A stretch of 64,000 nt of DNA from Naegleria lovaniensis. Taxonomy: Eukaryota; Heterolobosea; Eutetramitea; Acrasida; Naegleriidae. Made by a program: the position numbers and the translations under genes. A model generated the notes under the pieces. That model was not told the DNA's origin. It saw only the letters and a list, made by a program, of their open reading frames with translations, and did no database searches. Shown here in pieces: positions 7,644-59,157 of the stretch. Location: contig NW_025407849.1 of assembly GCF_003324165.1 (NCBI RefSeq), forward strand, positions 526,980 through 590,979. The letters run 5' to 3'. The stretch's first letter is position 1; each line of letters begins with the position of its first letter.

Positions 7644-10600
7644 TCAAAGATCCATGTTGAAAATGTCAGTCAATTTGAGAAGAATTCTTTCAAAAGAAGG
7701 TCTTTCTCTGGGATTCGTTGACCAACACTGCTTCATCAATTTGATATACATGTCAAATCCAATTAAGAAATCTTCGTTGGTTGCGTCATCGTTTGTCATG
7801 AATTTTTCACACCAAATACACATTTCATCCACATTGGAAAATGGAATCAATGGTCTTTTCTCATTGTTTGCAACGTGATACAGCAAGTTGAACATTTTGA
7901 TTCTTTCTTCAGAGCTGTCGTCTTCGAGAATTAATTCAGGACTCATGTATATTAACGTACCAATGTTGGCTGTGAGAGAGTTCGTCTGGGTGTTAATGGA
8001 AACAGCACGACTTAGACCAAAATCACAAACTGGTATGTTGTATTTTCCATCGAAACACAAGTCATGTTGATTCCAAAATAAAAATATAAATTCAAAATAC
8101 CCTTGATAGAAACACATACCTTTGGGAGTATTTGAATGATCAAGAATGATATTTCCTGGCTTCAAATCTCTGTGAATCAAGCATTTGGGTTGAATACTAT
8201 GGAGATATTTCATTCCATTCGATATTCCAATTAATATTTTCAATTTTTCTTTAAATGTCATTTTCATCTTTCCTTTTTTCATTTCCTTAATCATTTCTTC
8301 CAAACTTCCATTTTGGCCCAACTCGACGACCATACACATTTGGCTTTCAGAAATGCAAATACCGTAAAAACTGATAATATTAGGATGTCTGAGTTGCACA
8401 AGGAGCATAACTTCTTTTTCAAAATTTTCATGAGTGTCATCACTCCTGACAATACTCTTCACAGCAACGTCCATCATGTTGTACTTGGCCTTGTAGACGC
8501 TGTTAGTGATTCACAAGTTATTTTGAAATTAATAAAATGTTTGTTCGTGACATTACATACCTTCCACTCGAGCCTTCTCCAATTTTCTTTTTAATTTTCA
8601 ATTCGTGAGCTGAAATGATATAGTAATCATTGTTGTGAGTTGCAGCTGACCTATTATGTTCGTCAGAGTTCACAGAACCATATTCTTCAATTGGTATATT
8701 CTGTTGTAATAATTTTTCCTCAATTTCTTTTTCAGATCTTTGTCTTACATAGACACCTCTTGCAACTTTTATCATTTTCCAGGAGCAAAGGCCACAAAAG
8801 ACACAAATAAAGGCACCTCCAACAATGGCCAGAAACGTCAATACAATAGATGTTGCAATGATGGCTGGAATGACCTTGCTTAGTGGAAATCCGCTCACAC
8901 ATTTGCCATAGCTGACGACAAAGTCTTGTGGACATTCGTCAATTAAAAAAGGTATGACTATAGAAAAATTCGTTTCTGAAAAAGAAATGCTGATGGAAAT
9001 TGGTGCATGGTAATTTGTCAAATCAACCGTGCTCGTTTGTTGAATGGCTATTTGAATTTCAATGAGGTTTTCTTTGTGCTTGGAATAATTTGTTTCCAGC
9101 ACAAAGTTGTTATCTGAAATTTTGATTGAGGGTAACTCATACAACACTGGAATATTGTTTCCTTGTCTGTCGAGCATGTGATTGAATTGCAGTACCATTT
9201 TCTCTCCTGGATAATATTTGAAAATTCCTCCGTCTGTCATCTTTTCAACAATGGACGCTGAAAAGGAAACAATTGGTGATGAAATGTTTGAGCCGTAAAT
9301 TGCGGCTCTATTCTCTTCCATTAACACATTGTCCAATAAAACTGGGAGTGTTTGGTTTACATAATCAAACTCACTACCAAAGGAACTTGCATAGAATATT
9401 GCTCCTCCAGTATCGAATGCAAAGTTATTCTTGAACAGTGAATCGCTAATGGCTGTAGCATCTCCAGTGTATAATGCACCACCACGGTTTGCTTGATTGT
9501 TGATAAACTTGGTATCCGTAATTGTTGTCGCTTGGCAATTGAACAAGGATATTGCACCTCCACTCGAAAGATAAAATGATGAGTCGTCACGAATTATGTA
9601 TTCTACTGTGTTTCTCTGAAAAGTGGTTAAACTAATCTCCAGATGATGAACATGCATGGCATGCAAAGCACCACCTGATATTTTGGCTCCATTACTTGAA
9701 AAATCGTTGTCCATCAGATACATCTTGTTTCTGCCTCCAAGTACCGACATTGCTCCTCCACTGCCTTTCAGTGCATGATTATTTGTAAAAACTGAGCTAT
9801 AAACGCTAATTGTGTCACAAATTTCTGCAAGAGAAATTGCACCATTCTTGATAGCAGTATTTCCATCGAGTATTGTGTTACCTATAGTGACAGAATCTGA
9901 TTTCATGACAATCATTGCACCACTATGAGATGCGGAGTTATTTGATAACAAGGAATTCGATATTTCAACAATCTTGCACAAATAGAAATAGAAGATAGTT
10001 TCTGCTTTTGTACAAGTGTTGTTAGAAGCTGTCAGAGCTGCAAATACTTTCCCTACCGAAACCATCTTGATCCATCCACCTCCTTTCTTGTTTTTAAACA
10101 CGCTCCCTAAAATCTTCATGTTAAATACTAAGGAAACCGTGATTGTGTACTCGTCTTCATCACCATCCTCTGTATGTATGTATTCGAACTCTGACGACGA
10201 AATAGCAACATTGATGGTTGTCTCAAAAATGATTGCAGTACGTTGTGCTATATGGAATTTTGAGTTCTCCATAAGCACCGTGTTACAGTTTGTAAATTTT
10301 AAACGAGACCTATTGTTCTCATGATACCATAGGTTATTGATGTAAACTGTTTTACAGCCATCGATCAGCAAGTAGCCAGAGAATGTCGTATTTTCAAGAA
10401 ATACTTCATCTGTTTCAGGTAAAATGATTGAAGAATCAATTAGCTTGGAGTGTTCAGCTTTGAAAAAGTCAGTGTTCACATGGTTGTCCTGAATAATGAC
10501 GTCTTGCAAAATTGTACGGCGTATTCCATGAGCACGCAAAAACATATTGTGAACCTTAACATTGTCAATAATGATTGATGTCATTGGTTGAGGCTCCAAT

Positions 10601-11187
10601 AGAAATGGTGGATGTGAAAGAATGTGCCTCTCCTCTTTAAAGCAAGAGATGACTTTGGGAGTTAGAGCATCTGTACTCGTAATTGTCAAAGCAATATGCA
10701 CTCGGTTCACTGTAAGATCAACATCTGGAAGATTGTTGTAACAAGCTGTACGCCGACCTCTATTCTCAACCATGTCACTGACTACATTGATGGTTACAGT
10801 GTAATTAAGGCATACATAATCAGTAGAATTTGATTTTGGTAATCTGTTAAGGATATCTATTGAAAGATGTGTAAAAATTTCATTGAAAGACCAGCACGGA
10901 TTTTGCTCTGTCCTGTTCAGTGTACAAGAAATATTGCTCAATGATGGATTTTGTGGCGTCCCAACAAAATATACCCAGTTTATGCTTGTTGTGTGATCCG
11001 TGCAGTAGGAATCTGCTGATGATTGTTCCTTTGCCGTTGATGAGAGCTGTATTACTTTCTTCATTTCTGATCTTGGTGTTGCACCCATGATGATTGTCGT
11101 CATCATACATGCCAATATAATCACTCCCAAATGAGTACCTATCACTGCACCATAAGCACCACGAAACAACCGATTCATCATGATCAT
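7644..11187 (-). CDS. Receptor-like protein kinase with beta-helix ectodomain
   Basis: Transcribed right to left: exons 11187-8561, 8499-8120 and 8029-7644, about 1,130 residues. A signal peptide (about residues 1-35) leads into a long ectodomain rich in SGGAI, RGGALYTGDA and NNFAFDTGGAIFYA motifs, typical of right-handed parallel beta-helix or polymorphic outer-membrane-like repeats. A membrane span lies at about 772-800. The tyrosine-kinase-like domain starts near 860: glycine loop IGEGSSGSVYKA (built across intron 1), VAVK lysine about 886, HRDLKPGN about 983, and V-C-DFG about 1005 (restored by intron 2). After the SPE motif the usual alpha-F segment with the invariant Asp (DVYSFG type) is absent; the text goes straight to NEKRPLIP and CWSTNPRERPS. 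The core catalytic residues are present, but activity is doubtful. Confidence 0.85.
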
Positions 11188-12938: not shown

Positions 12939-13361
12939 ATGAAATTACTTTTCGTAGTTGTGTTGGCACTTGCAGTAGTATGGTGCATGTGTGCTGGTCA
13001 TTCAGTACAAGCAAAACGTCATGACCTTGAAGAACAAGCTTATAGATCTCAAGATTGGTCTCCCAAACCACTCTACAATCGTCTTCCCAAGTATGTTGAA
13101 GAACAAGAAGATTGGTCATTGGCAAGATTCACTCACGAAGAGACAAATGAATTGAAAGAACGTCATAAAAAACACTTGAACAGAGTAAAACAACTCATTC
13201 ATTCTGCTTTGGAGGAAGTACTTGAAGAGGAATCAATGGATGAAGAATTTGAAGAAGTACCAATGTCTGACAGTGCACGTCGTCGTCCTTGTGTTCCTAC
13301 TGGAATGTTTTCATTTGCAAGATTGATGGGACAACAATGCAGAACAGGAACTGGATATTAA
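12939..13361 (+). CDS. Secreted precursor with two-cysteine C-terminal peptide (copy 1)
   Basis: A 140-residue protein starting at the ATG after an A-rich leader (12930s). Residues 1-25 are a clear signal peptide (MKLLFVVVLALAVVW, then AGHSVQA). The middle is charged and helical, ending in an acidic run (EEVLEEESMDEEFEEV). It is followed by an SDSARRR basic site and a C-terminal segment with only two cysteines, 15 residues apart: C-VPTG-M-FS-F-ARL-M-GQ-Q-C, then RTGTGY. The gene at 18247 has the same plan and nearly the same cysteine segment. Seen: shared signal peptide, acidic spacer and cysteine motif. Inference: a prepropeptide from which a disulfide-looped peptide is released. Family not recognised; role (signal, defence or other) unknown. 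Confidence 0.8.
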   Translation: MKLLFVVVLALAVVWCMCAGHSVQAKRHDLEEQAYRSQDWSPKPLYNRLPKYVEEQEDWSLARFTHEETNELKERHKKHLNRVKQLIHSALEEVLEEESMDEEFEEVPMSDSARRRPCVPTGMFSFARLMGQQCRTGTGY

Positions 13362-13440
13362 TGATGTATTTTAAATTATGTTATTAGTAAACGAGAGCAA
13401 TATGATACATCAATTTCATGAGCGTTGGATATAATTTCGG

Positions 13441-13590
13441 TAGTAGCACCAGAACTTTGGTCCAATAATAGTAGATGTACCTCAAGGTTTTGATCGCTGT
13501 CATTTCATGGCTGATGGGAGCCGCATGTTATAGTACTGTAACATGAAGTGTGACAGTCTCCATGTTCAGGTCCAAAGTTACAAACCAGAT
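13441..13590. ncRNA. Candidate structured RNA or 3' UTR fold
   Basis: Three nested inverted repeats lie between convergent genes: 13453-13463 with 13569-13579 (10 of 11 pairs), 13497-13502 with 13551-13556 (6 pairs), and 13524-13530 with 13539-13545 (7 pairs, 8-nt loop). They are co-linear and could stack as one long irregular hairpin. It may be a non-coding RNA, part of the 3' UTR of the peptide gene ending at 13361, or of the gene on the other strand ending at 13614. No known RNA family was recognised. Confidence 0.3.
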
Positions 13591-13613
13591 ATAGATTGCA
13601 ATGTCAACATGCA

Positions 13614-15571
13614 TTATTGAAATTTGACTCGTTCAATAGTGGCAATCATTTCCTCAATTCGAGAGGAAATGTTATTAATCCATTTGTTCACTGCTTTGAA
13701 TTTTGGTTTCATCACAGTGAAAGCACGTAAATCCTTTTTTAAAATGCTGCAATAGTCGACTCCATTATGTACAAAGTCATTCCCTCCCTGTTGTAGTATG
13801 GAGTTGCATATTTCTAAATGTTTTTCGACTGCTTGTTTCACACAAAACACAACATCAATTGGGAATAGTGGGTAAAGAGGATTTTCGGTGTGATTGGTAA
13901 TGCTAAGTGCACTCTGTTCAATAACTTCTCGTGTGATGGATGATTGAGATTTTGACAATATTGCTATCCTCAAACTGTCCAATATCATTTGATAAAGAGG
14001 TTCAACAAATTCAAGCCTATTCACTGTGTCAGGTATTGAAAGCATGTCTGATTTTTCGATATTTTTGAACTTGTTCACAAGTAATTCAATAATGCTCCAA
14101 ATCTCAAAACAATTTTCAGGTGTCACTTTGCTAGTCATCAATTGAATCCATTCTTGAGGCAATGGTTCTTGACAAAAAAAAGAATATATTTCAGGAATGC
14201 AAGACAAAAAATTTTCAACAGATACCTTATCGAAATCTTCTATAATACCCAATTTTAGAGCAGCATTGTAGCTATAGATCCATACTTCCAAATTCTTTTC
14301 ATAAATAGTTGGTTGGGATGGAGTAACACTCTCAGAGTCTTCTGGTGCAAATAATTTCTTTGATAAAAAGTCGAGAATTGTAAAATAGAATTTGGCTTGT
14401 TCTGTCTTTCCAGTGTATAATTCATACATTACCAAATGTGCATATACTGCAGCTACGGTGATTGATGTTCGATCAAATACTTTGGAAAGACAATCTTTAG
14501 ATTTTTGAATGCTTTTTTCTGATTGTTCAAACAATCCATTTCGAGATTCACACAATGCCCGAACACTAAAATACATGGCAAACATTTCACAATTTTGCAA
14601 CTTGTTAGTGTCATTTCCAACATCATCACAATTTGGAAAATGTGTGATAAAATTTTCCAATTCTTCTCGTGACACCAACGGATAGCCTTCACATGCCACA
14701 TCAAAATAAAGATCAAAGACAGCTCGTGAGCTCAATGACTCGGAAGTTTTCAACTCTTCATTAACTGACTTTTTCCCAAGAGGATAAGGTGAGAATAATG
14801 GGTTCATGGAATGGGTCGATGGATTATTTACATTTCTTTGGTGTACGTTCGATGAGTGATTTCTGGAGTTTTCTGGAGTCTTTACATTGTTATCATGATT
14901 GGTTTTCTTGTTTCTTCTAGGTTCTCTATAGACACATTCAACTTTTCGTTGGGTGCACAAGTAACATTTTGGTAATCGTTTATCACACCTTCGATGCTGT
15001 TGTCGGCACTGTCATTTCATAAATAATGTTATTTAATAAATTCATTACTACTACCATAAATAAATGCTTAATTGCATACCTGTTCACAAGCAATTGGAAA
15101 AAATTCCGAACTGTTCTCGTCACTACTGTTTGATAAATTATTTACATTATTGCTCTCGTTATTACTAGTGATATTAGCCTGTGCAGTTGTACTTGAAGAA
15201 AACGAAGGTATGATAAAGCTACCGATGAAACTCTGCAAGTGTTGGAGAGGGTCGTTATTATTGTCTGTCCAATGTTGTCCCGATGGTATGAGTTCATTTC
15301 CATCTCCATCCCGATGAATGAATGAACCTAAAACTTGTTGTCCAGAACTGAATGATGAATATCCGTCATCATTTGCATTCCGTTGTGATTTGGACTCATC
15401 CACCAGAAAATCCTCAAGATTTAAAAATTCATTGTCCGTGTATGTAACACTATTGCTTTCTTGATGATGTTGGTTGATGACTCTAGCACACGGCCGTGGT
15501 TTTTGTTGTTGTTGTTGATATTGGTCGTTGTTGTTGGTATAACAACTCTCTCCATGATTATTTGGAAACAT
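13614..15571 (-). CDS. Zn(II)2Cys6 zinc-cluster transcription factor
   Basis: Two exons on the minus strand, 15571-15080 and 15008-13614, with a phase-0 intron (GTATGC to GACAG); 628 residues. The intron falls inside the DNA-binding domain. The joined protein reads C162-x2-C165-x6-C172-x6-C179-x2-C182-x6-C189 with basic residues between, which is exactly the fungal GAL4-type binuclear zinc cluster. The N-terminal 160 residues are Asn/Gln/Ser-rich, like an activation region. The C-terminal 430 residues are helical, resembling the middle-homology region of such factors. Expected to act in the nucleus on CGG-type half sites. The target genes are unknown; neighbours are the peptide precursor (convergent) and the F-box/LRR gene (divergent, 124 bp). 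Confidence 0.85.
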
Positions 15572-15695
15572 TTTTTATGAATGATAAACCGATTTCCCAA
15601 CGTTTTCTTCCATCAAACTCCGAATTCAGAATAAATCACGCCCATGTCATCCTTGAAAATAGAAACTGAAACTCTATTTTGTAGTTACTAATAAA

Positions 15696-17703
15696 ATGCT
15701 CCAACATGATGAACTTTTTGCAGATGATATGCTTTTCCATATTTTTCAATACGTGGAAGACCGAAGCCTTATTGTCGTGTGCAGGCTTGTTTCCAAGCAG
15801 TGGTATGGGGAAGTAATGGAAATGCCTTTGAATTTGGATTTTTCAAAGAGTCGTTTGCGTCCGAGAGTTGATCATCATTCATTGTTGTTGGAGCAAGAAG
15901 AAGAAATTTCAGAAACTGGTTCAACAATGATCAAACAACAACAACAACCTTCAACAGAGCTACGAGAAGCAGAAACAATTTCGGAAGCAACACGAATTTA
16001 TTCTATCCTAAGTCCTCCAATTTCCAATATTACTTGCTTGAATTTATCCAACAATTTATTGGGACACGATCAACTGAATACTCTAGCCTCGTGCGAAAAC
16101 TTGAAAAATTTGAAATCATTGGATCTTTCTGCAAACGATTTCAGTCGGAATAGTTCATCTTCATCGTCGTCTTGCAGTGCAATTTTTTCACTCGTATGGA
16201 GTAAATTCATGTCTAACTTGACAAGTTTGAATGTAAATGCTACAACACTGGAATAATAGCTATTGCAGCAAGCCCAGTCATGTCCAACTTACGCGAGCTT
16301 TATGTACAAACAAATTCGCTCACCAGAGCAAGTGTTGAAGCAATTGGAAATAGCAAGACTCTGACAAATCTTACAATATTGGATCTTGCTTATAATAAGA
16401 TTCAAGCCTGCGATGTTGAATGCTTGACACAAAGTAGCAACATGAAAAATCTTACTCTATTGGATTTAAGCCATAATGCTGTTCGTCTTGTGGGTGCAAG
16501 ATGTATTGCCTCAAGCAAATATTTGAATAACATTAGAACGTTAAATTTGGCAAATGCTATTGATGATGAAGGGGTGAAGGTGCTCATTACAAGTCGCTCT
16601 ATGAGCAATTTAACACAATTGAATTTAGAAGGAGTTTATTCGCCAAGAATAACTCCAAAACATCCCTTTCCAATGTTTGCCTCCAGCGTTTTCAACAGTA
16701 GTTTAACCCACTTATCCATACAGATTCGTTTTGTCGTACCCAAGGCGTTTATGAAGGATATTACCGTACTTCACAACTTGCAGTACTTGAAACTTTCGTT
16801 TTCTCCAATTGACATTGATGGAGCAAAGGAATTGGCTGCCCACGAAAGTTCGAAACGTATCAAAACGCTTCATTTGATCTGTTGTAAAATCAGCGAAGAA
16901 GCGGGTGCTTTACTCATGCAGAGCCCACATTTGGTAAATTTAACTAGTTTAAATTTGAGTGGGAACCAATTAGATGGCACCTTATTATTTAACTTATCCA
17001 TGTACACTACAATTCATTTCGAAAAATTAACATCTTTAGATCTAAGCTCGAACGGTATCAAGTCTGACGGAGCTGTTCTGATGTCCCAATGCTCTCGATT
17101 ATTAAGGAACGTTAAAGAATTGAATTTAAACTACAATACCATTAACGACCAAGGACTCTCAGCATTGGCGTCCAGCAAATATTTGAGCAATTTAACTATT
17201 TTAAAGCTGAGTAGCAATGGAATTGGTGACTATGGAGTTGCTTCTCTTTGTGAGAGCGAATATTTGAAACATCTGACACATCTCAATCTTTTTGCGAATT
17301 CACAAATTTACAGCGAAGGTGCAATCTCTATTGCAAACAGTGTTAATATGAAGAATTTAACATTTATAATGTTGAATAATTGCAATATTGGATCGAAGGG
17401 TGCCGTGGCATTAGCCTCAAGCGAATTGATGCAAAACTTAACAGGTGTGTTGTTTATTATTTCATTGGATTTTTGTCACACATGCTTGATCTAACAATAA
17501 TAGGGTTACATGTGTCCTGTAATTGCATTTCATCAACAGGAGCTCTTGCTATTGTGTCAAGCAAGTACTTGACCAAGTTGCAAGAGCTCGACATGCAAGG
17601 CAATGTATTTGGGGGAAATACATACGAAGAGATTACCACACGACTATCCACATTCAAATATTTGACAACAGTTGTCATACAAAGGCAGAGACATTTTATA
17701 TGA
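15696..17703 (+). CDS. F-box/LRR protein, frameshifted
   Basis: The N-terminus (ELFADDMLFHIFQYVEDRSL...VCRLVSKQWYGEV) is an F-box-like domain that would dock to Skp1 of an SCF ubiquitin ligase. It is followed by cysteine-poor LRRs of about 24-28 residues (LTSLDLSSNGI, NLTILKLSSNGIGDYG). The frame stops at 16254, then LRRs resume in another frame from about 16262 (IAIAASPVMSNL) and run to 17444. A 59-bp intron (17445-17503) joins them in phase to the last repeats, ending at TGA 17701. The break fits a net loss of one base (modulo 3). A splice-based rescue does not keep phase. It is either a recent pseudogene or an assembly error; the rest of both halves is clean. Confidence 0.75.
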
Positions 17704-18246
17704 ATTATGGTTCACTTGTTTTCGTTGGAGTACTTTCAGCCAGTAGTAGCTGTTCACTTTACGGAGAATTTTATATCATAATCTCAGCATGTTCATCACC
17801 CCAATTGATTTCCAACCTTATTTTGGAGAATATCACAATTCAATTTACCTGGAAGAGAGGAAAACTAGGATGGACACAATAATTCAATTATTCGACCGCT
17901 CGAGAATTGTGTTTTCAAATGTAACTTGAAACTAATGACAGATGGAAAGATTGCAACTTTTTGGACAATTTATATTTCTTTGGGACTTGGTCTTTTTAAT
18001 TGTTGGATAGGACAGGAATCTTATCAACTACTGTATTATCAGATAGATAATCAAAGTTGATGTTCAAGCAAATCATTGTTGTAATAGAGCCAGATTTGGA
18101 AGTGTTGAATTGGTTACAGTCACTTCCATTAACTGAAAACACGAACTGAACTCCCCCACAACCATGCAACACATCAAGAAATTTCAAAGCACGTATTTAA
18201 AGAGTCCTTCTTCCAACGTTATCAACCTGAGACCATTGAAAAAAAC
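17704..18246. other. Intergenic, possible antisense relic
   Basis: No supported gene. The minus strand has a 63-codon open stretch at 17996-18187 that lacks an ATG and reads like an extracellular domain end (FVFSVNGSDCNQFNTS). It could be a relic of a surface protein, or chance. Confidence 0.4.
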
Positions 18247-18822
18247 ATGAAATCCATCGTCGTGTGTAGTGTTTTGGCACTTGTCATCATTGCCTTGTTG
18301 AGTTTGAACGTTTCACATGCACAACAACAAAATGATATTTTGCCAGCTGTCCATCCACAAAACAACCTTGCATCCGAGTTGAGACGTCTCCTTTCTCAAC
18401 TTCGTAGATCATCTCCACAAGCTGATTTATTACCAACCGATGCATCTCTTGAAACCATTCGTCAAAATCTCGAACAAGAACAACGTCAAAACAAACGTTG
18501 GTTGATTCAACCAGCACGCAAGTCTGCTGAGAAGAGTGTGGTCGAGATGGCTGATTTGAGAATTGTCGAACAACTTGAAAGAATGAAAAAGAATATGGAA
18601 ACTCGTCATAAACAAGATTCCGTATTGTTGAAACAGAAATTAAAGGAAGAATTACAAGTGCTTCGTGCTGCTTGGAAGGAATTACTCGAAGAAGATGCCT
18701 TTGAAGAAGAGGAGCAAGAAGAGGACGCAGAAGAATTGGCAGATTCTGAATGGGGTCCTCGTTGTATTCCAACTGGTGCTTTTTCATGGGCAAGATTGTT
18801 TGGTCAGAAGTGTGTTTATTAA
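18247..18822 (+). CDS. Secreted precursor with two-cysteine C-terminal peptide (copy 2)
   Basis: A 191-residue protein, start ATG after an A-rich leader. The signal peptide is residues 1-25 (VLALVIIALLSLNVSHA with cleavage before QQQ). The middle is Arg/Gln/Leu-rich and coiled-coil-like. An acidic run follows (EEDAFEEEEQEEDAEE), then the C-terminus WGPR-C-IPTG-A-FS-W-ARL-F-GQ-K-C-VY. Between the two cysteines 11 of 15 positions are identical to copy 1 at 12939, the spacing is the same, and the tail again ends in Tyr. The precursors are otherwise very different in length and sequence, so selection acts on the C-terminal loop. It lies 4.9 kb from copy 1 in the same orientation, which suggests old tandem duplication. 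Function not recognised. Confidence 0.8.
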   Translation: MKSIVVCSVLALVIIALLSLNVSHAQQQNDILPAVHPQNNLASELRRLLSQLRRSSPQADLLPTDASLETIRQNLEQEQRQNKRWLIQPARKSAEKSVVEMADLRIVEQLERMKKNMETRHKQDSVLLKQKLKEELQVLRAAWKELLEEDAFEEEEQEEDAEELADSEWGPRCIPTGAFSWARLFGQKCVY

Positions 18823-29186: not shown

Positions 29187-31253
29187 TTATTCGTTAGCTG
29201 TCATGCAGCAGAAGAGGTAATAGTACTGGTTTAGGGTTGCAAGGTATCTGTCTTCCACAAGCTGTTCGTTGGAAGAGGTACGATAAATTCTCGTGGGATT
29301 TCCGTTCCCTCCAAACCTCATAGTATGAGCGAACATATCTTTGCCATACTTGTTCAGTCGTTCATGCACTGTCATGGCAAATGGGTACAATGTTCTGTAA
29401 ATAAATAAATACATGATCACATGTTCTTGGAGAATGTGTAAATAATAAGGCATTTTCCAATACGTGCCTATTGTGTCTCCAATAACAGGGACAATGACAG
29501 AAATATAATGGTCAATTTTCTTTGCAACGTTGTGTAAATCATTGTCTGAGCAAAATGTTGGTTGTACCAATAATTTAACGAGTTCAGATCCTGCTTGAAA
29601 TATTCTTGTCACCTTTCCAATCCAAACGTATGCAAGAGTAGAGAGTTGTTGATTACTTGCGTGCTTTTCCATGATTTGAGTGATATCTTCAATAATTTTG
29701 TTGCCATATGTTTCCCATACATCGTCTCCCATTAAATTAATTTTGTCATTTTGGCCATAATATCCTTTGTCCTTGTAGTATTGTTTCAACTCTTTTTGAC
29801 ATTGCTTTGAAATTTTCAATGCAGCATGCAATGCAATCTGTAAATGATTTTCTCCCAATCTCATGAATTGGTGCAAAATGTCAGGAATTCTTCGTAAAAT
29901 GGAAATATTGGCGAAAATAATATCACCTAAACCAGGGTGTCGGTGTCCCTTGTCAGTAAAAAGTTCAGTGAAACAATCCCAGGTTTCAATTTGGATTTTG
30001 CCTTCAATTGTCTCTCGTAATGATTTTCGTGTGTTTTCTTTGGACTGAAACAACATTTTCAGTATTTCTTGAGCTCGATTATTGTTTTTCCACTTGAGCG
30101 AAAACAAGAATTGTTTGTGTGTTTCATAATCAATAGGGCATACAAAACATATTCTATTCTTATCATCCGTTTGCAATGCAAGCATGTTTTTTAAATCTCC
30201 ACCCATTGCTACATTAAATTGCAACCGAATAATAATTTTCTCTGAGGTACAGGTTTTCACAAAATTTTTCAAAAACGAATCTTTCTGAAATAGAGCAATT
30301 GGTAATTCAAATATAAACCGATGGCTTTCAAATTTTGCAATCAATGATTCAATTGGCTTGAATGAGCTCAATAATGTACAATGATTGTCGCTGTTTTTAG
30401 GTAACGCTGCCAATAATTTGTAATTACTATGATGTTGTGCAGCATCGCAAATAACAAGCCCTAAAAAGCAAAGTATTTCATTCACTTTCCTACTTAATTT
30501 ATGGGCATCAGTGGACACTCTTGCCATTGAATAAACTTTAAATTCTCCTTTTTTGTTAAATCCAAATTTTCGGCTTCTGAATCCAGAAATCGGAGCATGT
30601 TCCAACCATTTTCCTGTCGAGCGTATCACTTCTATTACTTTTGTATTTGTTAATAATTTTGAAAAAGACTGAATTGGATCAATCGCAAAGCCTTTGATAT
30701 CGTTGTTGCTTTTGATGATGATCATCTCTTTTGCTATTTCATCCTTAATCCCTTTCCGATATTTCGAAATGGTTCGGTCACTGAATGGAATGTATTTTGT
30801 TTCATACAACTTTTTAATTTGTTTTTTGCTTAAACCAGTGTTGATGATATTACGTTCAACTTCTTCAATGGACAATCGATTATGTTTCTTTTCGACCATG
30901 TTGTTGTTTTCGTCAAGTGTTATGATTCGGAATTTAGTGTACCGCATTGTTGGGTGTATTGGATCAGAAAGCGTTAACGAGATATTTAATTCTGCATTAG
31001 TTTGATTGATGTAATTGAATTCCTGTAATTGCTTTGTAATTGATGAAATGATGGAGGACCATAATTGAGAACAAGCTGTTGTTTTACTAGCTTCAGCTAA
31101 AGCGAATAATGGTGTACGTTTTTTCTGAGCTAAATCCAGTCCTAGGACCTCTATCTTTCGTTTCAGTTTGTCTGTTGTTGCTTCAGTCAGCACTACTTGT
31201 TGCTTCGGTTTCCCTCTGCCCTTGTTGAACCAATCAGGAAGAGACTCACTCAT
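29187..31253 (-). CDS. Putative transposase of unclassified family
   Basis: Single frame of 688 residues on the minus strand, ATG at 31253, filling the element between its inverted ends. The N-terminus has a basic WFNKGRGKPK stretch and a Lys-rich segment with a helix-turn-helix-like look (SKKQIKKLYETKYIPFSDRTISKYRKG, in separate parts), as expected for end binding. Candidate catalytic acids include LVICDAAQHHSNY, CFVCPIDYETHK and RRIPDILHQFMRLGENHL. I cannot align them to a known DDE/D family with confidence. The frame is undamaged, so the copy may be autonomous. Placement inside inverted repeats is the main reason to call it a transposase. Confidence 0.65.
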   Translation of the reverse strand: MSESLPDWFNKGRGKPKQQVVLTEATTDKLKRKIEVLGLDLAQKKRTPLFALAEASKTTACSQLWSSIISSITKQLQEFNYINQTNAELNISLTLSDPIHPTMRYTKFRIITLDENNNMVEKKHNRLSIEEVERNIINTGLSKKQIKKLYETKYIPFSDRTISKYRKGIKDEIAKEMIIIKSNNDIKGFAIDPIQSFSKLLTNTKVIEVIRSTGKWLEHAPISGFRSRKFGFNKKGEFKVYSMARVSTDAHKLSRKVNEILCFLGLVICDAAQHHSNYKLLAALPKNSDNHCTLLSSFKPIESLIAKFESHRFIFELPIALFQKDSFLKNFVKTCTSEKIIIRLQFNVAMGGDLKNMLALQTDDKNRICFVCPIDYETHKQFLFSLKWKNNNRAQEILKMLFQSKENTRKSLRETIEGKIQIETWDCFTELFTDKGHRHPGLGDIIFANISILRRIPDILHQFMRLGENHLQIALHAALKISKQCQKELKQYYKDKGYYGQNDKINLMGDDVWETYGNKIIEDITQIMEKHASNQQLSTLAYVWIGKVTRIFQAGSELVKLLVQPTFCSDNDLHNVAKKIDHYISVIVPVIGDTIGTYWKMPYYLHILQEHVIMYLFIYRTLYPFAMTVHERLNKYGKDMFAHTMRFGGNGNPTRIYRTSSNEQLVEDRYLATLNQYYYLFCCMTANE

Positions 31254-46412: not shown

Positions 46413-46429
46413 TAAAAAATCAAAAAAAT
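46413..46429 (+). repeat. Target-site duplication of SINE, right copy
   Basis: Second copy; its last two bases AT are the first two bases of the ATG of the next gene (46428-46430). Confidence 0.85.
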
Positions 46430-48262
46430 GCTTCCGCCCTCACCAACACCCAAAAAACGTCGTTTTCTTATTCCTCCCTTTCTTTCTTTCAACAGGCATA
46501 ACCAAGAAAACGGAAGTTCTTCGGAATTATCTGTTTCCCAATCATTTCCGAATTCTTCCTTATCTCAGGTTTCTGGATCTGTTCTCACCTCACATCAAGA
46601 AGAATCTCATTCCTTGGACTCTCGACCTTCTTATTCAAATTCAATTCCCCATTCTTCGGATCCATCTCCCCTTTTTACAAATCAGCCTGTAACAATTAAG
46701 GATCTGTTCCAGTATACTGTATCTATTGAGGGATTGGATGACTTTATATTGGATCAAATTCTCTCTGACTCCATTGTATGGCATACAGTAAATGCGGAGG
46801 CCCGTTCAATGACTAACAATATGAAAGAGATTTTGTCAACGTGTATGACTGCGCACCACAGCTTTTTTCGTCGAGCAAAAGCAAATTCGCATATTATTGT
46901 CGAAGGGTATGCAAGGACAGGAAAAACAACGCTTTCTAAAACTATTTTCCCTCATATGATGTCCCGCTTAATCGTTCACAAGCAAAAGTACCCAGATCCA
47001 GGGAATGTAACATCCTTCAAGCGTTTTAGACTCTTTTTCTTCAACTGCACTCTAATTGATAGAAGTAGAACTACTTTCTTAGAGGATATTTGTGTTGGAA
47101 CTTTGGGTATGTCTCAGGTTCCACATATTCAACAATTGGTCAACAAATTGAAAAAGCATTTTGAAGACAAAAGTGTTTTCAATTTTATAGTGGTTGATGA
47201 GGTACAGGCCCTCCTTCCTTCGGAACTAGCACAGTTGAAACTCTTGCTGAAGGATCCCACTCTGAACACAAACATTTTTGGAATTATTACTGGATCCACT
47301 CAAGCTGAGGTTGTAAGAAGAATCGCTCTTGTTCCAAGCAACTGCTTTGCGTGGAGTGATGCTCGTGTGAGATACACAATTCCTAGATGTTGCAGTGAGA
47401 ACCAACTTCAAGAGTGCCATCACTGGTTGAAAAAAGAGTTTCCCAACGTGCAACTGGATGATATCGATTTGATTAGGATACAAAACCATTTCGGAACGTT
47501 GCATTGGAGCTTTTTGACCCAGATTTATGACTCCCTTGCAAATGAGAAAACGTTCATCAAGAGACAATCCCTAAATGTGGTACTACAAGACATAACCAAT
47601 TCTTTATTTGAGATCTATGATAGAGACGTCATGCAAACCATTTTATCCATGCAACATCCGAACGCTATTGAGCATTTGCTGCAAGGAATTTTTGAAAAGA
47701 ACTTCTTCGACAACCACCCTTGCGAGAGGGAGTACTTTTTCGTAAAAGACTCCAACTCTCAAAAGTTTATTTTCAGAGACTTGATATTCTCAAGGGTAAG
47801 TTAATCAATGTCCATTCTCTATGAGAGAAAATGATAATCTTGTTGCAGTATTTGCGTTGTAATTACGAACACTCTGATGGCAGAATAAAGTACTGGAAGG
47901 GAGAGAAATCAGGGAAACGGATTTACATGCTTTTGCTACCTTTCATCGTAGCAAGTGAGCAGGCTAAAGGAAACAATTTCTCTAAAGCAGTTATTAAGGT
48001 TTTACAAAAACGAATTATTAACGAGAAAGCCTTTTTTACGTTGATGCCGGATCGATGTGAAAGAATCGACTCCTTTTCTGGAAAGAACAAAACACCAGAG
48101 GAGAAGCTTCGTATGTTCTTGATTTTCATACGAAACGTTTTGAGTCATTCGCATAACCAGGCAGCAGCAATTTATGAAATTATTATGGAGTTGTTCTGTA
48201 ACAATGATGAAGAAAACTTTCAAAGTCTGGTATTGGACATATCTCCTCATGTTGAAATTTAA
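46428..48262 (+). CDS. P-loop ATPase of unknown family
   Basis: Exons 46428-47795 and 47849-48262 (phase 0, GTAAGT to TTGCAG), 593 residues. The start ATG directly abuts the SINE duplication; the next in-frame ATG is beyond residue 125. Residues 1-95 are Ser/Pro-rich. A P-loop GYARTGKTT lies at about 160 with Walker B FNFIVVDEVQALLP at about 250 and a sensor-like GIITGST strand after it, so an AAA/STAND-type ATPase is likely. The C-terminal 200 residues are helical and not recognised. In this subtelomeric setting, next to a CRN/RHS-like gene, it may belong to the same broad class of mobile-associated NTPases (inference). The frame is intact. Confidence 0.75.
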
Positions 48263-50767: not shown

Positions 50768-53700
50768 ATGACTGAAACTCAATCCGACCCCAATACTACT
50801 TCTAATAACCCGGTAAGAAGACGATCTAGAGGAGGAAGAATATTATATCATAAGGCTTCATCGTCTCCTTCCACAAATACTCAACAGGCTGGAAACACAA
50901 GCCCACAGGGCTCAAACTCTTCTACAACCAGTGCTTCAGCCAATACTCCTTCCCATAACTCGTTAAGTAGAGGACAGAGAGGCAAACGAAGAGGTAGAAG
51001 AGGAGGATCATCATTTGATATAAACCCTGCGTCATCACCTCCTTCCACAAATCCTCAACAAAGCTCTGATGAAAAGCTAGAACTAAGAGTTCCAAAGTGT
51101 ATGTTGAATTAGTTATTGAATTTGGACCACAAATATTTCATCATTAATAGTCATCAAGGTAAAGGATGTTGTTTCCCCAATCTCCGCATCGCCTCTAATT
51201 ACCAAGAAGGAACTAACATCAACAAACGATAGTAATACTCCAATTGTTTCTTCATACTCCGAACCAATCACTGAATCTTTGGGTGCTGGTTTGTCAGCAC
51301 TTCGTTCACAAGAAGTAGAAACATCAAACGACTCAACATTGTCATCTTCAACTACATCCTTGCTCGAAACACCCACTCTCGATTTGACTGATTACGAGAG
51401 TTGGAATGCCGAACAAGTAGCTTCACTATTGATTTCTCCTAAATCTTTGGGTGGTGCTGGTTTGTCGGTTGAAAAGGTGAAGCCTTTGTATGAGGCTGGT
51501 TTTGATGGCTCATCTCTCCACAACATTGTTGAGAATATCAAGTTGGACGGTGTAAAGTATGCCATTGATCAACTGCAAAGTACTTATAACAAGAGTAGCA
51601 TTCCTCAACTCTCCGACACTTGTCAAACTGTTGTATTTTGGGTGCTCGATCAATTAATGACCAGACAATATTCACTATGGCAATTGGAGCCAGTGAGTAA
51701 ACAAATCAAAGAAAAATTGGGCGAACCAATTTCAAAAGGAGGTGCTGAGTTGAGTCTTGATCAAGTTTCTTCATTGGATGTCAAAACTCTCAGCAAAGTT
51801 ATTGCTGCCGTAGAGAAGGAAATAGTGAAAGGTGTAACAGAAGAAAAATGTATGCAATATGCCATCACGATTATGAAAAGCGACAAGGACTTTGCTTCAG
51901 TGTCAGAATATACTTGCAAAGCTGTTGCTGGGTGGATTACTACCAAATTGAGAAAGGCTGGCGAAGGAGGTTCTTTAATTAATATACCGTCCAAGTTGTT
52001 TGATCTTTGGAAGCACAAGTTGGAAGGAGAAATATCTGAAAATTTACGAAAGGAAAGAACAAATGCAAGATATGACCATCTCCGTAATTTACAAGATCCA
52101 ACGAACATGAAAAAACTGGAAACACTCATTGGAAAATTTATCGATCTTCCTGTATTTGGAACGGGAGAAAGTGATTTGTCTCCAAAAGGCTTTAATCCAA
52201 ATGCGAAATATCTTTTAACTCAGCAACGATTTGATATACTGAACAATGTTGTTAACGGAAAAACCACTGGATTGGTTTTATCGGGTCCTCATGGAGTTTC
52301 AAAATCATATACACTTTATTTGATAGTTGCCTACGCATTTGTAAATTCAATTCCAGTACTTTATGTTCCAAGATGTCGACTATGGCTCAGCAGTTACAAC
52401 ACAGATCAGGAGGCTGGTGCCAATAACTACTTGCGTAGATTGTTCTTTTCTCTGAATAGTGACATTCTTTCCACGACCCAAATTGTTGAATTACAGAAAG
52501 CAAGAAATGTGGTCCGTCATTTGAGCACACATTTTGGAAATGTGGGACCTATGTTCTATTTGTTTGATGAACATAATGAATTGTACAGACCTGACTATTA
52601 CAACAAGATTCCTGCTTCCCTTGCTTATTTCCAAGATTTTACCGGATGGACAGGAGATACATCAGAGAAGCACACAGTTACCGTATATTGCGGAAGTGCT
52701 CATAGTTCCTTTGAAGATAATTTACCAGGAGGAGACGAAGAAAGAGTGGTCAGAATAATTCCTCCAACAACAACAGAGTTTGAAACACTGGTAGCAGACT
52801 TTGGTTTGAATCCAAAGGATAAAAGAATAGCCCATGTAACAGGAAGAATTCCAAGAGAGTTGAGATACTTGGCAAACTATTTGAAGGGCAAAAAGGGTAC
52901 TGATGAAGATTTCAACCAATTTGTCATGAATATGCGTGGTGTATATGATCGAAGATTGGATTTATTAGTTAGTACATTGGACAAAAATAAGTTGGAAAAG
53001 TTTGAAAAGACGCTGGAAGATCTTTTTGCTCTTGGTATTTTAAATGGAAGACCTGATCGTGTTTCAGGGGTTGTATATGATAAGGGTTTATTGTACAAGG
53101 ATTCTCTTGGAAAACTTTTTATCATTAACGATCCAGCAAAGAGATGTTTATTCCATCACTACTGCACAAAACTTGACATGCCAAACATACCGAAGAATGT
53201 TCATAATTCAGCGACAGGAATAATGTTTGAAAAACACTTGGTGAGACAAGAGTATGGAATTGGTAAACATTTAGAAAGAAAATTCTATGTAACAAATAAG
53301 TTGAGCTCAAACCCCACAACATCCACGTTATCATATGAAATTAACCTACAAGAAAGTTTTGATCTAAAGGATTTAAGCACTCTCGATCGAAGGAATTTCT
53401 TGAAAGGAACGGGAGTATTATTCATTCCAGAATCCGAAACTTTCCCAAGCTTTGATTATGTTATTGTTATGTACAAAGAGAAGCCAGTGGAAGTCTTGTT
53501 GAAACAAGCCACAATTTCTACTATTGATTCTCATTACTGTGATCAAAAGGGTAAAACAGATATGGATAAATTATTGAAACGTTTTTATGTTTTAGATAGA
53601 AAAGGAAAGGCAATGAAAAGAAAACAAAAAGCTCCAAAGCAGTATCATTTCTCATTACTCGAATTGATACTTCATGGAATTGTTGGAACTGAAGAAAAAG

Positions 53701-53930
53701 TGGAAACGGAAACCCTTGGAAAGTTACAAGCTCGCAAGGACGATCTAAAGTTCATCAAAGATGGAAAGCTTGAAAACTCAGTAACCTATGGTGGTGTTCA
53801 ATTCACTTGGCATTACATTTATGAATCTGGTGCGGAAGAACAATCTGTAAAGAAGGTAAAGGAACATGGTATACTTTTTAGGAACCGGCAAGAAATTGAA
53901 GCCGATATGAAGATTTACTTTGAAAAATAA
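50768..53930 (+). CDS. CRN/RHS-like SAM-NTPase-nuclease protein
   Basis: Exons 50768-51098 and 51151-53930 with a 52-bp phase-1 intron, 1,036 residues. The first 180 residues are disordered, with an RG-rich basic patch (RGQRGKRRGRRGG). A SAM-like module starts near 194 (WNAEQVASLL...LYEAGFDGSSLHNI), with a second helical module after it. The NTPase core has a degenerate Walker A GPHGVSKSYTLY at about 488 and Walker B FYLFDEHNE at about 580, with the VLYVPRC strand typical of Crinkler and retrotransposon-hot-spot proteins. The C-terminus carries a restriction-endonuclease-like core (YVIVMYKEKPVEVLLKQATIST...H), matching the QxTxS..H signature of that class. Such proteins are subtelomeric and fast-evolving in many protists. 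Frame intact. Confidence 0.8.
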
Positions 53931-55455: not shown

Positions 55456-57831
55456 ATGTCTCAAAAACAATTACGCCAAGCAGAACTTTCATCATCAGAT
55501 GATGATGATGCCGGAACTGATACCGATGATGATGACGATCAGCTTTTTTGTTTTTTGAAGCGTCCATGTGCTTCCTCCAAACATAATTCAAGAATGGATC
55601 ACAAGCCATCCAATGACAACTGTGAGAAGGGAAATACCAAAAAATTCACTATGAAGGACATTTTAACGCCTTCTGAATTCCTTGTCAGATCCAACTCACA
55701 ACAATATGCTGTTCCGTCGAATGAAGTTCCTCATTTACTTACAGCTCTTCTAAAAATTGTTAACAATCCGAACAAAACACAATCTCGTGAAGAACTCAAA
55801 CAGTTGGCAGAAGTGTTTGAATAATTTAAAACTAGGACAGAAGAAAGTGACAAGGACTTTGAAAAAGACGCTATGGATCATATTAAAAAGTTATTGAAAT
55901 ACGATGACAAAGTACGGCCAAATATTGGTGGAAGAAATGAAACTCCAACCATTGTTCAAGTGAATGTCGGAGAGATGAAGAAACGACTTCATAATATGCC
56001 TCACCATGATCACGACAGACCCGAGACAGATCAATATGAATCGGAATTACTCTCAAGAAACCATGAAAAGATACAAGCAGTACTCAACAACTCAAAACCA
56101 TTGAAACCAAGGGAAAAGGAAAAGCCAAAAGATTTAATTCCATCCATCGAGCCACTAGATTTCACTAAAGATTTGGACGAGTTGTTCAAGGGACTAAAAG
56201 AAACTTTGACACTTAACTTCGCGAAAGGAACAGAGGAATATCAATTTTATGCAATGCGGACTTACGTCTATTTCTATAATAGTGTGGTAGCTGAAAAATT
56301 TCTCTTTTCCAAATATCAGCGACAACCATTTCCAGTCAAAAAGATGACCTTTTTATTATTTTTAATTTGGGCAAGACAGAATGGATATGCGTACAAAACT
56401 GTCAAAGATTGCTTTTGTAATTCTTTTTGTAGAGTAATTGAACTCAATCCAATTCTAGGAGAATCACCACGAAGTGCTCATCCTGAATTGGTGGGAGGAG
56501 TGCTTCGATCTTTAGTGAGAAAGTACGGAAAGAAAACATTTAAAGTTAATGCATTATTGAACACTCATATGTTGGCATGGATCGATGAGCTTGACATGAA
56601 CAAGTTTTCAGATATAATGGTGAAAGCACTAATTCTCGTTGGTAGATACACTGGATTAAGAGGAGACTCTCTTGTTCACATGAATTTGTCAGATATTGAA
56701 TTTAAAACGAAAGATCATGACGAAGATGAATTTAGCGTAAACCTTTACATGACCATTAGAAAAGAAAAGCATTTACAAGGATGTGAGACACGCAAAATAT
56801 GTGTTCATGGAAAGAAATCACAAAAATATTGTCCTGTGATCAGTTTACTCTATTATTTATACGTGAGAAACAAATCAATGTTTAAGAATGGAGTTAAAAC
56901 TTGGAAAGAATTTCTCACTTCGAAAGATTTCTCGTTTGCCGCAAATTATACAGATGAACCTTTGTTTGTTCAAATCACTAATAACCACCGAGTCACGTCG
57001 AAAGATTTATCTAACCTACTCAAATCTTCCTCTAAAACACATCTTGGAATAATTTATTCAATGAGAAGTCTTCGATCTGGATGTATTATCATGATTTTTA
57101 TTACATTAGTATTAATTTATGGACCTGATAGCGTCAGATCATTAGGAGCTATTCCAATAAGCGTTTGGATTGGTCATCTTCGACATGAATCAGCTGAATA
57201 TTACATAAGACAAGCAATCACCTTATGCTTCAATTACACTGAATTCCAACATGGAGTTATTGACAAAAATATTACTATTAATGAAATTGATATGATTTAT
57301 TGTTCAGGGTTAAAGAAAATTGTGAAAGATTCAACTATTAAGCGCTTCAAACCACCTCGTACTGTCATAGATGAGTTTAAATTATATCTACCAAGAGGCA
57401 AGAAATATTCTAATCCCGAATTGAAAAACAAGCCAGTGGTGATCCCCAGTTCAATTAAGGAACATATTAATGAAACTTACGAATTAGGTATTGAACAAGC
57501 TGAACGAAAGGATACTGCATGGTTTTCTTTTTTCATGAAATGTGCGGACGTGTTGCAATATACTCACAATATTAATTGGAATCAATTGAAGACCTCAAAG
57601 AAGAAGCTTACTAAGACTGTGAAATTTACATTGGTGAAGAAATGGATTGTTGAGAATTGGGAAAATCAGTCTGACATGTTGCACGAAGTGTTTTGTGCTG
57701 TGTCTGATTCGTGGGAAGTTCCTAATTGTGCCTTTCGTTACAAGAGAAGAAAATCAGATAAGGTTACTGTTGAGTGGGGTGGGTTTGGCTCCACCTACAG
57801 TAGTTCCTCGATTAGAGCAGTGTTCAAATAG
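55456..57831 (+). CDS. Tyrosine recombinase, one in-frame stop, 3' end altered
   Basis: ATG 55456. The frame stops at TAA 55822-55824 but continues in the same frame, with a fresh ATG at 55873 giving 652 residues. The first part is acidic (SSSDDDDAGTDTDDDDD). The catalytic domain shows box I arginine in RYTGLRGDSL (residue 263 of the second frame), a MRSLRSG arginine (401, with Arg in the usual His place), GHLRHES with His 435, and the nucleophile pair YY at 443-444. This is the R...R-H...Y order of tyrosine recombinases, close to Crypton-type enzymes. The last 11 codons are foreign: the pogo-like element enters at 57798 after GFGSTY. Without it the frame would run on to about 59330. Confidence 0.8.
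57798..57818 (+). repeat. Left TIR of pogo-like element
   Basis: 21 bp, exact inverse of 59232-59252. Confidence 0.9.
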
Positions 57832-57894: not shown

Positions 57895-59157
57895 CTAGTT
57901 GGAAGAACAGTGTTGTACCTGTTTCCATTGAACGTCATCGTCCTCTGAACCATCTTTAGCAAGACCTAACCCTGCTTTTTTGAATCCGTTCACCACAACT
58001 GAGTCAGGTACATCCTTCAACGCATTGGAAATCCATTCGAGAATAAGTTTTTTGGTTACGCTATAGAAATTTTCTTGAGTACCCTTCTCAATTCTGTCAG
58101 CCTGGTTGTCATACCACTCACCTTGTAGTTGCTTGTAATTTGATTTGAACGATCTATTCATGGAAAGATCACACATCTGCATAACCTCGCTAGCATTCTT
58201 TGGTAAAGGCAGAATGGTAATGTCTTTGACCTTATCCCTTAGTAGGTCAACTATTGGTAAGTGGACATGACTATCTAAATTATCGAATGTGAGGAGTTTA
58301 TGACCATCAAGGCTCTTTAGGAAAGGAATTAATACCATGTCACAATACTCTTTCATCCTAGGTCTATCCATCCACGCTTTCTCTTGTGCTGTAAACTTCA
58401 CGTTGGGCTTCATTACTAAGATGGCGCCTGCTTCTTTCCTTGGAACCTTTTTCTGTTTGAAAATAATGAAAGCAGGTGCTTTCTTCACAGTAAGATTCTC
58501 AACATTCATAGCGGCTGCCAGAACTGTGGTGAATCTGTCCCTTTCTCCCTTTGGTGCTTTACATTTGTTGTTGTCAGATTTATCTAAGGTGACACCTTTA
58601 CCATCCTCCATCCACTTCATGCAGTATGTTTCGTCATAATTAATTACCCATTTTACATCCTTTCTCTTTTCGATATCAATCACTTTGCATTGGAATTGTT
58701 CACAATCATTCAATACTTCTGTTGTGAGCTTGAGAGGCTTTAAATTTGGAGATCTTACATTAACATCATTTCGCTTCTTGAATTTGTCAAACCAGCCATT
58801 GGAGGCTTGAAGTATCTTGCCTTCGGATTCTGCCGCATCTCGTGCCCATTTCTTCACCTGCCTGGTTCTCACTTTCAATCCCTTGGTTCTACGTTCTCTG
58901 ATTTTTGATACTACTTTGGTTTCTGCACCGACATCAAGTACAGGCTTCCTTCCTCCTCCTTTCTTTCGTATGCCTTCAACTTTTTCTTTGGAGTTCACAC
59001 GGCTGTCTTTTCTCCACTCATAAAAAGATGACTCGGTGCATTCATACTTGTTGATTGCTGCAGTATTGCCATGTAATTTAGCGTAAGCCAGTACTTCTCT
59101 CTTCTCTTTGACGGACCAAACTTTTCTCTTCTGCTTGTGGCTGGATTTTGCAGGCAT
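57895..59157 (-). CDS. Pogo/Tigger-type DDE transposase
   Basis: Minus strand, 420 residues, ATG at 59157, no introns. An N-terminal helix-turn-helix (KVWSVKEKREVLAYAKLHGNTAAINKYECTESSFYEW, in parts) and a CENP-B-like second domain (ARDAAESEGKILQASNGWFDKFKKRN, in parts) bind the element ends. The DDE_1 catalytic domain has its acids in WVINYDETYC, LLTFDNLDSHV and VMQMCDLSMN. The D-D-D triad and the NLDSH context are typical of pogo, Tigger and Jerky proteins. The frame is undamaged and lies wholly between perfect inverted repeats, so the copy may be active. Confidence 0.93.
   Translation of the reverse strand: MPAKSSHKQKRKVWSVKEKREVLAYAKLHGNTAAINKYECTESSFYEWRKDSRVNSKEKVEGIRKKGGGRKPVLDVGAETKVVSKIRERRTKGLKVRTRQVKKWARDAAESEGKILQASNGWFDKFKKRNDVNVRSPNLKPLKLTTEVLNDCEQFQCKVIDIEKRKDVKWVINYDETYCMKWMEDGKGVTLDKSDNNKCKAPKGERDRFTTVLAAAMNVENLTVKKAPAFIIFKQKKVPRKEAGAILVMKPNVKFTAQEKAWMDRPRMKEYCDMVLIPFLKSLDGHKLLTFDNLDSHVHLPIVDLLRDKVKDITILPLPKNASEVMQMCDLSMNRSFKSNYKQLQGEWYDNQADRIEKGTQENFYSVTKKLILEWISNALKDVPDSVVVNGFKKAGLGLAKDGSEDDDVQWKQVQHCSSN

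What the first reader, a model, noticed from the sequence alone, without database searches (positions are those of the whole stretch)
12939..18822. Two secreted precursors share only a C-terminal two-cysteine loop peptide
The genes at 12939 and 18247 encode signal peptide, charged spacer, acidic run, then a C-terminal segment C-[IV]PTG-x-FS-[FW]-ARL-[FM]-GQ-[QK]-C and a final Tyr. Length and spacer sequence differ widely while the loop is kept at the same 15-residue spacing. This is the pattern of prepropeptides whose product is the last 20-25 residues, held by one disulfide. An acidic spacer before a basic peptide is known from antimicrobial and hormone precursors. I know of no described amoeboflagellate peptide family with this motif.
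Basis: partly seen in the sequence, partly recalled or inferred. Interest (0 to 1): 0.8.

Follow-up and report, generated by a model that had tools for sequence, protein, structure and literature searches.

The report
Paired secreted proteins with disulfide ring
Two neighbouring genes of a single-celled eukaryote, probably an amoeboflagellate, encode related small, apparently secreted proteins that end in the same well-conserved 17-residue stretch bounded by two cysteines; they look like precursors of a new cyclic peptide, but release of that peptide is not shown.

Summary
The observation largely holds. ORFs 12939-13361 (140 aa, P1) and 18247-18822 (191 aa, P2) each have a hydrophobic N-terminus, a charged helical spacer, an acidic run, and a C-terminal C-[VI]PTG-x-FS-[FW]-ARL-[MF]-GQ-[QK]-C with 15 residues between the cysteines, then a tail ending in Tyr. 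The ring is 12 of 17 identical; its cysteines are the only ones after the predicted signal peptide. "Share only the loop" is too strong: the spacers are also homologous (score 86; 0 of 2000 shuffles reach it; segments of other window ORFs reach at most 50). These are divergent full-length paralogues whose ring is the best-kept part. Pfam, NCBIfam, PDB sequences, viral contigs and prokaryote genomes gave no convincing relative; no eukaryotic genome collection was available, so the family's spread is untested. P1 has RRR just before the ring, P2 a single Arg, so common processing is not established. Best reading: a secreted precursor whose C-terminal ring is the active end and is released (0.4). 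Main rival: the ring stays attached as a sorting or binding head, as in granins (0.33). An antimicrobial role is weakly supported.

The parts
12939..13361 (+). P1: 140-aa protein, uninterrupted ORF
12939..13013 (+). P1 probable signal peptide (25 aa; V-x-A then KR)
   Evidence: 12-residue Kyte-Doolittle maximum 3.55; highest among 21 other ORFs 2.22, some of which may not be true N-termini; cut site read by eye, no signal predictor run
13014..13211 (+). P1 charged spacer (residues 26-91); long helix predicted from residue 49 to 99
   Evidence: homologous to P2 spacer; AlphaFold2 block pLDDT 86-94 over residues 61-90
13212..13271 (+). P1 acidic run (residues 92-111, net -11)
13278..13286 (+). 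P1 Arg-Arg-Arg, candidate processing site just before the ring
   Evidence: not conserved in P2
13290..13340 (+). P1 17-residue ring C118..C134
   Evidence: 12 of 17 identical to P2; only two Cys after residue 25
13341..13358 (+). P1 tail RTGTGY
18247..18822 (+). P2: 191-aa paralogue, uninterrupted ORF
18247..18321 (+). P2 probable signal peptide (25 aa; S-x-A)
   Evidence: 12-residue Kyte-Doolittle maximum 3.45; cut site read by eye
18322..18678 (+). P2 charged spacer (residues 26-144); residues from 72 on align with P1, the 46 before that have no counterpart in the local alignment
   Evidence: helix 65-165 predicted
18679..18741 (+). P2 acidic run (residues 145-165, net -13)
18763..18813 (+). 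P2 17-residue ring C173..C189, preceded by Gly-Pro-Arg
18814..18819 (+). P2 tail VY

Best explanation
P1 and P2 are diverged paralogues encoding secreted preproproteins. The signal peptide sends them into the secretory pathway (inferred from sequence). The two lone cysteines close a 17-residue ring (inferred). The helical, acid-ended spacer acts as a prosegment that keeps the mildly basic ring soluble and carries it to the release site (inferred). A trypsin-like or cathepsin-like cut at the arginine next to the ring (RRR in P1, single R in P2) frees a 19-24-residue cyclic peptide that ends in Tyr and acts outside the cell, most likely as a signal between cells or on other microbes (inferred). 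Shown here: paralogy, ring conservation, the cysteine count, the spacer homology. Not shown: secretion, disulfide, cleavage, activity.
For: Ring 12 of 17 identical against 22 of 80 in the spacer. Exactly two cysteines after residue 25 in each, at the same 15-residue spacing, and no N-glycosylation sequon there. Strongly hydrophobic N-termini (3.55 and 3.45; best of 21 other ORFs 2.22). Arg two to four residues before the first ring Cys in P1 and directly before it in P2. AlphaFold2 gives a confident helix that stops before the ring and no confident fold for the ring, as a flexible end would. P2 differs from P1 by extra stretches while the ring is gap-free. Arg codon CGT is used 14 of 25 times against 71 of 458 in 21 other ORFs, with only two CGT positions shared by alignment; this may hint at high expression.
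Against: P2 has no dibasic site before the ring. The spacer is itself conserved beyond chance, which a disposable spacer need not be. The tails differ in length (6 and 2 residues). Only two sequences were available. The structure models rest on two sequences (pTM 0.28 and 0.30). The codon hint is weak: Arg was picked after looking at six amino acids, there is no set of highly expressed genes for comparison, and overall codon typicality of P1 and P2 (-0.949, -0.997) lies within the range of the 21 other ORFs (-0.918 to -1.146). A cleaved signal peptide was not told apart from an uncleaved membrane anchor.
Confidence: 0.4

Rival explanations
1. The full-length proteins are the products. The long charged helix with its acidic end is a stalk or condensable body, and the C-terminal disulfide ring is a head that self-associates or binds a membrane or partner, sorting the protein into granules or the extracellular coat. 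This works like chromogranins and other disulfide-loop cargo. If the N-terminal segment is not cleaved, the ring would sit at the tip of a membrane-anchored stalk.
For: Spacer homology; one long predicted helix running through the acidic run in P2 (65-165); no conserved dibasic site; small disulfide loops of hormone precursors and the 22-residue loop of chromogranin B are reported to drive granule sorting (PMC8807871, abstract and passages seen).
Against: The ring is at the C-terminus, whereas the granin loop is N-terminal (CgA domain, CgB recalled); no Pfam match. Helix pairing was not tested; the hydrophobic periodicity peaks at 3.7 in P1 and at 4.9 (3.7 third) in P2, not at the 3.5 of a canonical coiled coil.
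Confidence: 0.33
2. The ring is an antimicrobial or prey-directed peptide released in phagosomes or outside, with the acidic run neutralising it until cleavage.
For: Acidic run (net -11 and -13) before a C-terminal part of net +4 (P1) and +1 (P2); Naegleria phagosomes are said to acquire antimicrobial peptides (PMC9928731, passage).
Against: The free peptides would carry only net +2; the 15 residues between the cysteines have a helical moment of about 0.24 and a strand moment below 0.1; no Pfam match for the ring segments at E up to 10.
Confidence: 0.12
3. A lineage-specific structural protein of the cyst wall or cell coat in which the ring is simply a folded end cap.
For: No relatives found in the collections searched; a weak codon hint of abundance.
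Against: No Pfam hit to a sugar-binding or other known family above cut-off, no N-glycosylation sequons; stage of expression unknown.
Confidence: 0.1

Closest known systems
Chromogranins A/B (granins)
   Same: Secreted, acidic, charged body with one single-disulfide loop (22 residues in CgB, PMC8807871 passage); that the body is poorly and the loop well conserved is recalled
   Different: Granin loop is N-terminal; no sequence match; here the ring is 17 residues and C-terminal
Natriuretic peptide precursors (ANP/BNP/CNP), recalled from memory
   Same: 17-residue ring with one disulfide at or near the C-terminus, Arg-rich site before it; ANP also ends in Tyr
   Different: The recalled ring signature with Asp-Arg-Ile is absent; the Pfam scans at E up to 10 list no natriuretic family. 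Treated as convergence or coincidence
BRICHOS-type precursors of disulfide-closed hairpin peptides (arenicin/alvinellacin), recalled; the alvinellacin paper PMC4002450 was seen only in the listing
   Same: Signal peptide, prosegment, C-terminal disulfide-closed peptide
   Different: No BRICHOS domain listed for P1 or P2
Naegleriapores and other saposin-like peptides
   Same: Amoeba effector peptides (named in the abstract of PMC7561387, listing); precursor processing recalled
   Different: Saposin-like proteins need six cysteines (recalled); the parts after residue 25 here have two

Membership tests
Prepropeptide with C-terminal cyclic product | N-terminal cleavable signal peptide | tested here: inconclusive
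   Hydrophobic cores 3.55 and 3.45, above the 21 other ORFs, and cut sites read by eye; no signal predictor run, anchor not excluded
Prepropeptide with C-terminal cyclic product | Conserved processing site before the product | tested here: inconclusive
   RRR in P1, single Arg in P2
Prepropeptide with C-terminal cyclic product | Conservation concentrated in the product | tested here: met
   12 of 17 against 22 of 80, p = 0.0014, though the spacer is homologous too
Prepropeptide with C-terminal cyclic product | Free peptide with closed disulfide | not testable with these tools
   Needs mass spectrometry
Natriuretic peptides | Pfam family match | tested here: not met
   Not among the hits at E up to 10 (HMMER filters drop most hits above about 0.1)
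Natriuretic peptides | Two cysteines bounding a 17-residue ring | tested here: met
   By sequence; family definition recalled, disulfide not shown
Granins | Sequence match to a granin family | tested here: not met
   No granin among the Pfam hits
Granins | Loop-driven sorting into granules | not testable with these tools
   Needs cell experiments
Saposin-like pore-forming peptides | Six-cysteine saposin fold | tested here: not met
   Two cysteines after residue 25; no such Pfam hit
Known enzyme or structural family | Significant profile or sequence match | tested here: not met
   Best Pfam E 0.04 and NCBIfam 0.034, both far below the curated score cut-offs; best PDB match for P2 E 0.029, none for the ring profile; P1 alone was not run against the PDB

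The most novel reading that the evidence does not exclude
A previously undescribed family of cyclic peptide signals in heterolobosean amoebae, made from paralogous acidic precursors, which independently reached the 17-residue disulfide ring with a C-terminal Tyr known from animal natriuretic hormones.
Probability: 0.15. Interest if true: 0.75.

Novelty: new member of a known kind. Interest (0 to 1): 0.42.

Why it matters
My paper searches turned up no described peptide precursor of this kind in Naegleria (open-licence papers only, mostly listings seen). A published N. fowleri secretome lists 208 predicted secreted proteins, 107 of unknown function, and mentions AprA and countin relatives as possible density sensors (PMC6831594, section 10 read). 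A short, conserved, easily synthesised ring is a directly testable candidate for a secreted signal or effector of such organisms.

Tried and rejected
Third copy in the window: none. Profile and single-sequence searches of six-frame fragments find P1 and P2, then nothing below E 0.42.

Shared promoter: a 25-column upstream alignment containing ATTTCAAAG looked suggestive, but 43 of 1000 shuffles reach its score over 150 bases (33 of 1000 over 110; over the full upstream regions the best match is a different one, 185 of 1000), and the pair ranks 6th of 136 pairs of upstream regions in the window. Rejected. The 3' 200 bases show nothing (588 of 1000).

Relatives elsewhere: two viral scans (600 and 16 pattern matches, none confirmed) and one prokaryote genome scan (27 pattern matches, none confirmed). 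The patterns lay in the spacer and acidic run, not the ring; searches used the ring, where a 31-aa query leaves little room for the E 1e-3 confirmation. The window's own genome is not held, so family size is unknown.

Known families: weak Pfam hits (P1: CDH1/2 linker 0.052, uteroglobin 0.8; P2: GDSL lipase 0.04, IL34 0.053, Piezo 4.2, FUSC 9) and three NCBIfam hits each (best 0.034) all score far below the curated cut-offs. For P2 the PDB gave four weak matches, best a syntaxin chain at E 0.029 over residues 17-94; the ring profile gave none. A cathepsin propeptide pattern (recalled ERFNIN) was considered by eye and dropped, as no Pfam hit supports it. N. fowleri has a cystatin-type inhibitor with a QVVAG motif (PMC8063937, passages); that motif is absent in P1 and P2 (sequences).

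Organism: one kinase ORF was compared with PDB chains in the hope of a Naegleria match (60 of 357 matches shown). The table gives molecule names only and did not help.

Structure library search was not done: the models (pTM 0.28, 0.30) are mainly long helices plus an unresolved ring, and a match would mean little.

Literature: six ring fragments searched in full text, 0 papers. 'Naegleria' with 'secreted peptide' (3 papers), with 'peptide hormone' (4), with 'antimicrobial peptide', 'genome' and 'amoeba' (53, 15 listed), and four further term sets. Listings and abstract starts were seen; passages were read in PMC9928731, PMC6831594 (also its section 10), PMC11589745, PMC8063937 and PMC8807871. 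None of what I saw describes such a precursor. Supplementary tables could not be read.

Full report
What is there. Two uninterrupted + strand ORFs lie 4.9 kb apart: P1 12939-13361 (140 aa) and P2 18247-18822 (191 aa). Between them are minus-strand ORFs (13614-14807, no Pfam hit; 15068-15571, not scanned) and plus-strand ORFs from 15696 on, of which 16280-17494 is leucine-rich repeat by Pfam. Both proteins start with a strongly hydrophobic segment (maximum 12-residue Kyte-Doolittle 3.55 and 3.45; the highest of 21 other window ORFs is 2.22, some of which may not be true gene starts). By eye both have a small-x-Ala cut site after residue 25; no signal predictor was available, and an uncleaved anchor is not excluded. 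Then come a charged spacer, an acidic run (net -11 and -13) and the C-terminal part. Acidic runs of this density are not special here: two other window ORFs have more D/E in 20 residues (15 and 14 against 11 and 13).

The ring. CVPTGMFSFARLMGQQC and CIPTGAFSWARLFGQKC are gap-free, 12 of 17 identical. The two ring cysteines are the only cysteines after residue 25 in each protein, so one internal disulfide is the natural reading, though an intermolecular one is not excluded. The C-terminal parts score 74 in alignment against a shuffle mean of 16.8, 0 of 2000 shuffles reaching it. The strict motif is found at these two places only in six frames of the window.

Not only the ring. BLASTP aligns residues 22-134 of P1 with 67-189 of P2 (26% identity, E 5e-9 for the single comparison). 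With the signal segment and the C-terminal part removed, the score is 86. Global shuffles average 38.2 and block shuffles 45.1; none of 2000 of either kind reaches 86. P1's spacer against 242 segments of 21 other window ORFs reaches at most 43, and P2's spacer against 267 segments at most 50; reversed controls give 37. With the acidic run removed too, the score is 58, reached by 1 of 2000 global and 2 of 2000 block shuffles; reversed it is 25. The two are therefore full-length paralogues with extra stretches in P2, and the ring is the best kept part (12 of 17 against 22 of 80, p = 0.0014; Asp-Ser to second Cys 14 of 24, p = 0.007). The segment boundaries were set after the alignment was seen, so these p values are descriptive. 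The signal segments themselves are no more alike than shuffles.

Structure. AlphaFold2 with the two-sequence alignment gives P1 a helix 49-99 and P2 a helix 65-165. Block pLDDT is 86-94 over P1 61-90 and 81-95 over P2 101-150; the ring blocks are at 47-51. Both models place a four-residue helical turn inside the ring (P1 126-129, P2 181-184), at that low confidence. Nothing firm can be said about the ring's fold. Hydrophobic periodicity does not peak at the 3.5 of a canonical coiled coil.

Processing. P1 has RRR-P-C before the ring. P2 has GPR-C with no dibasic site there; its dibasic pairs are all at residue 114 or before. A common dibasic processing rule is not met; a single-Arg cut remains possible. 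The last 24 (P1) or 19 (P2) residues would carry net +2.

Expression hint. Arg is CGT in 14 of 25 codons of the two genes against 71 of 458 in 21 other ORFs (Fisher p about 9e-6). Only three Arg positions align between the two, two of them CGT, so common descent does not explain it all. High expression is one explanation, but Arg was picked after six amino acids had been printed, the overall codon typicality of both genes is within the range of the other ORFs, and there is no reference set of highly expressed genes. Upstream regions are not convincingly alike against the window's other genes.

Relatives. No convincing Pfam, NCBIfam or PDB match (for the PDB, P2 and the ring profile were run, P1 alone was not). 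Two viral-contig scans and one prokaryote-genome scan gave no confirmed relative. The source is eukaryotic by content (DOCK, oxysterol-binding, WD40 genes).

Explanation and rivals. I favour a secreted precursor that releases the ring (0.4). The granin-like rival, in which the ring stays attached and drives sorting or binding, is nearly as likely (0.33) because the spacer is conserved and P2 lacks a clear site. PMC8807871 (abstract and passages) reports that small disulfide loops of hormone precursors drive aggregation and granule sorting, and notes the 22-residue loop of chromogranin B; it also says that not all prohormones have such loops. The two ideas can both be true, since in hormones the loop that is released can also sort the precursor. 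Antimicrobial action (0.12) and a structural coat role (0.1) are less supported.

Comparison with known rings. The ring size and the final Tyr recall atrial natriuretic peptide (from memory). The recalled core signature is absent and no natriuretic family was listed by Pfam, so this is at most convergence.

Verdict. A real, well-defined pair of paralogous, probably secreted proteins with a conserved, probably cyclic end, apparently undescribed within what could be searched.

Noticed in passing
window 57895-59157 -: DDE_1 transposase-like ORF with a Tc5-type DNA-binding domain (Pfam E 1.9e-17 and 5.5e-7), 420 aa, open throughout.
   Followed up: partly
window 46428-47804 + and 51657-53930 +: Two large ORFs with an AAA_22 hit (E 6.3e-7) and a DAP3 hit just under its cut-off (E 9e-5), about 10 and 4 kb from the transposase-like ORF; possibly mobile-element genes.
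   Followed up: partly
window 55873-57831 +: 652-aa ORF with only a weak, below-cut-off NDC10_II hit (E 0.0052); that fold is related to tyrosine recombinases (recalled), so it may be a Crypton-like recombinase.
   Followed up: no
window 7644-11187 -: Beta-helix ORF 8518-11187 (Pfam Beta_helix 5.5e-9) followed on the same strand by an ORF at 7644-8477 that reads kinase-like by eye (not scanned); perhaps one receptor-kinase-like gene with an intron between.
   Followed up: no
window 14930-15010 -: Cys-rich stretch that by eye resembles a Zn2Cys6 DNA-binding motif, upstream of the 397-aa ORF between P1 and P2, which has no Pfam hit.
   Followed up: no
window 29187-31253 -: 688-aa open ORF without any Pfam hit at E up to 0.01.
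   Followed up: no
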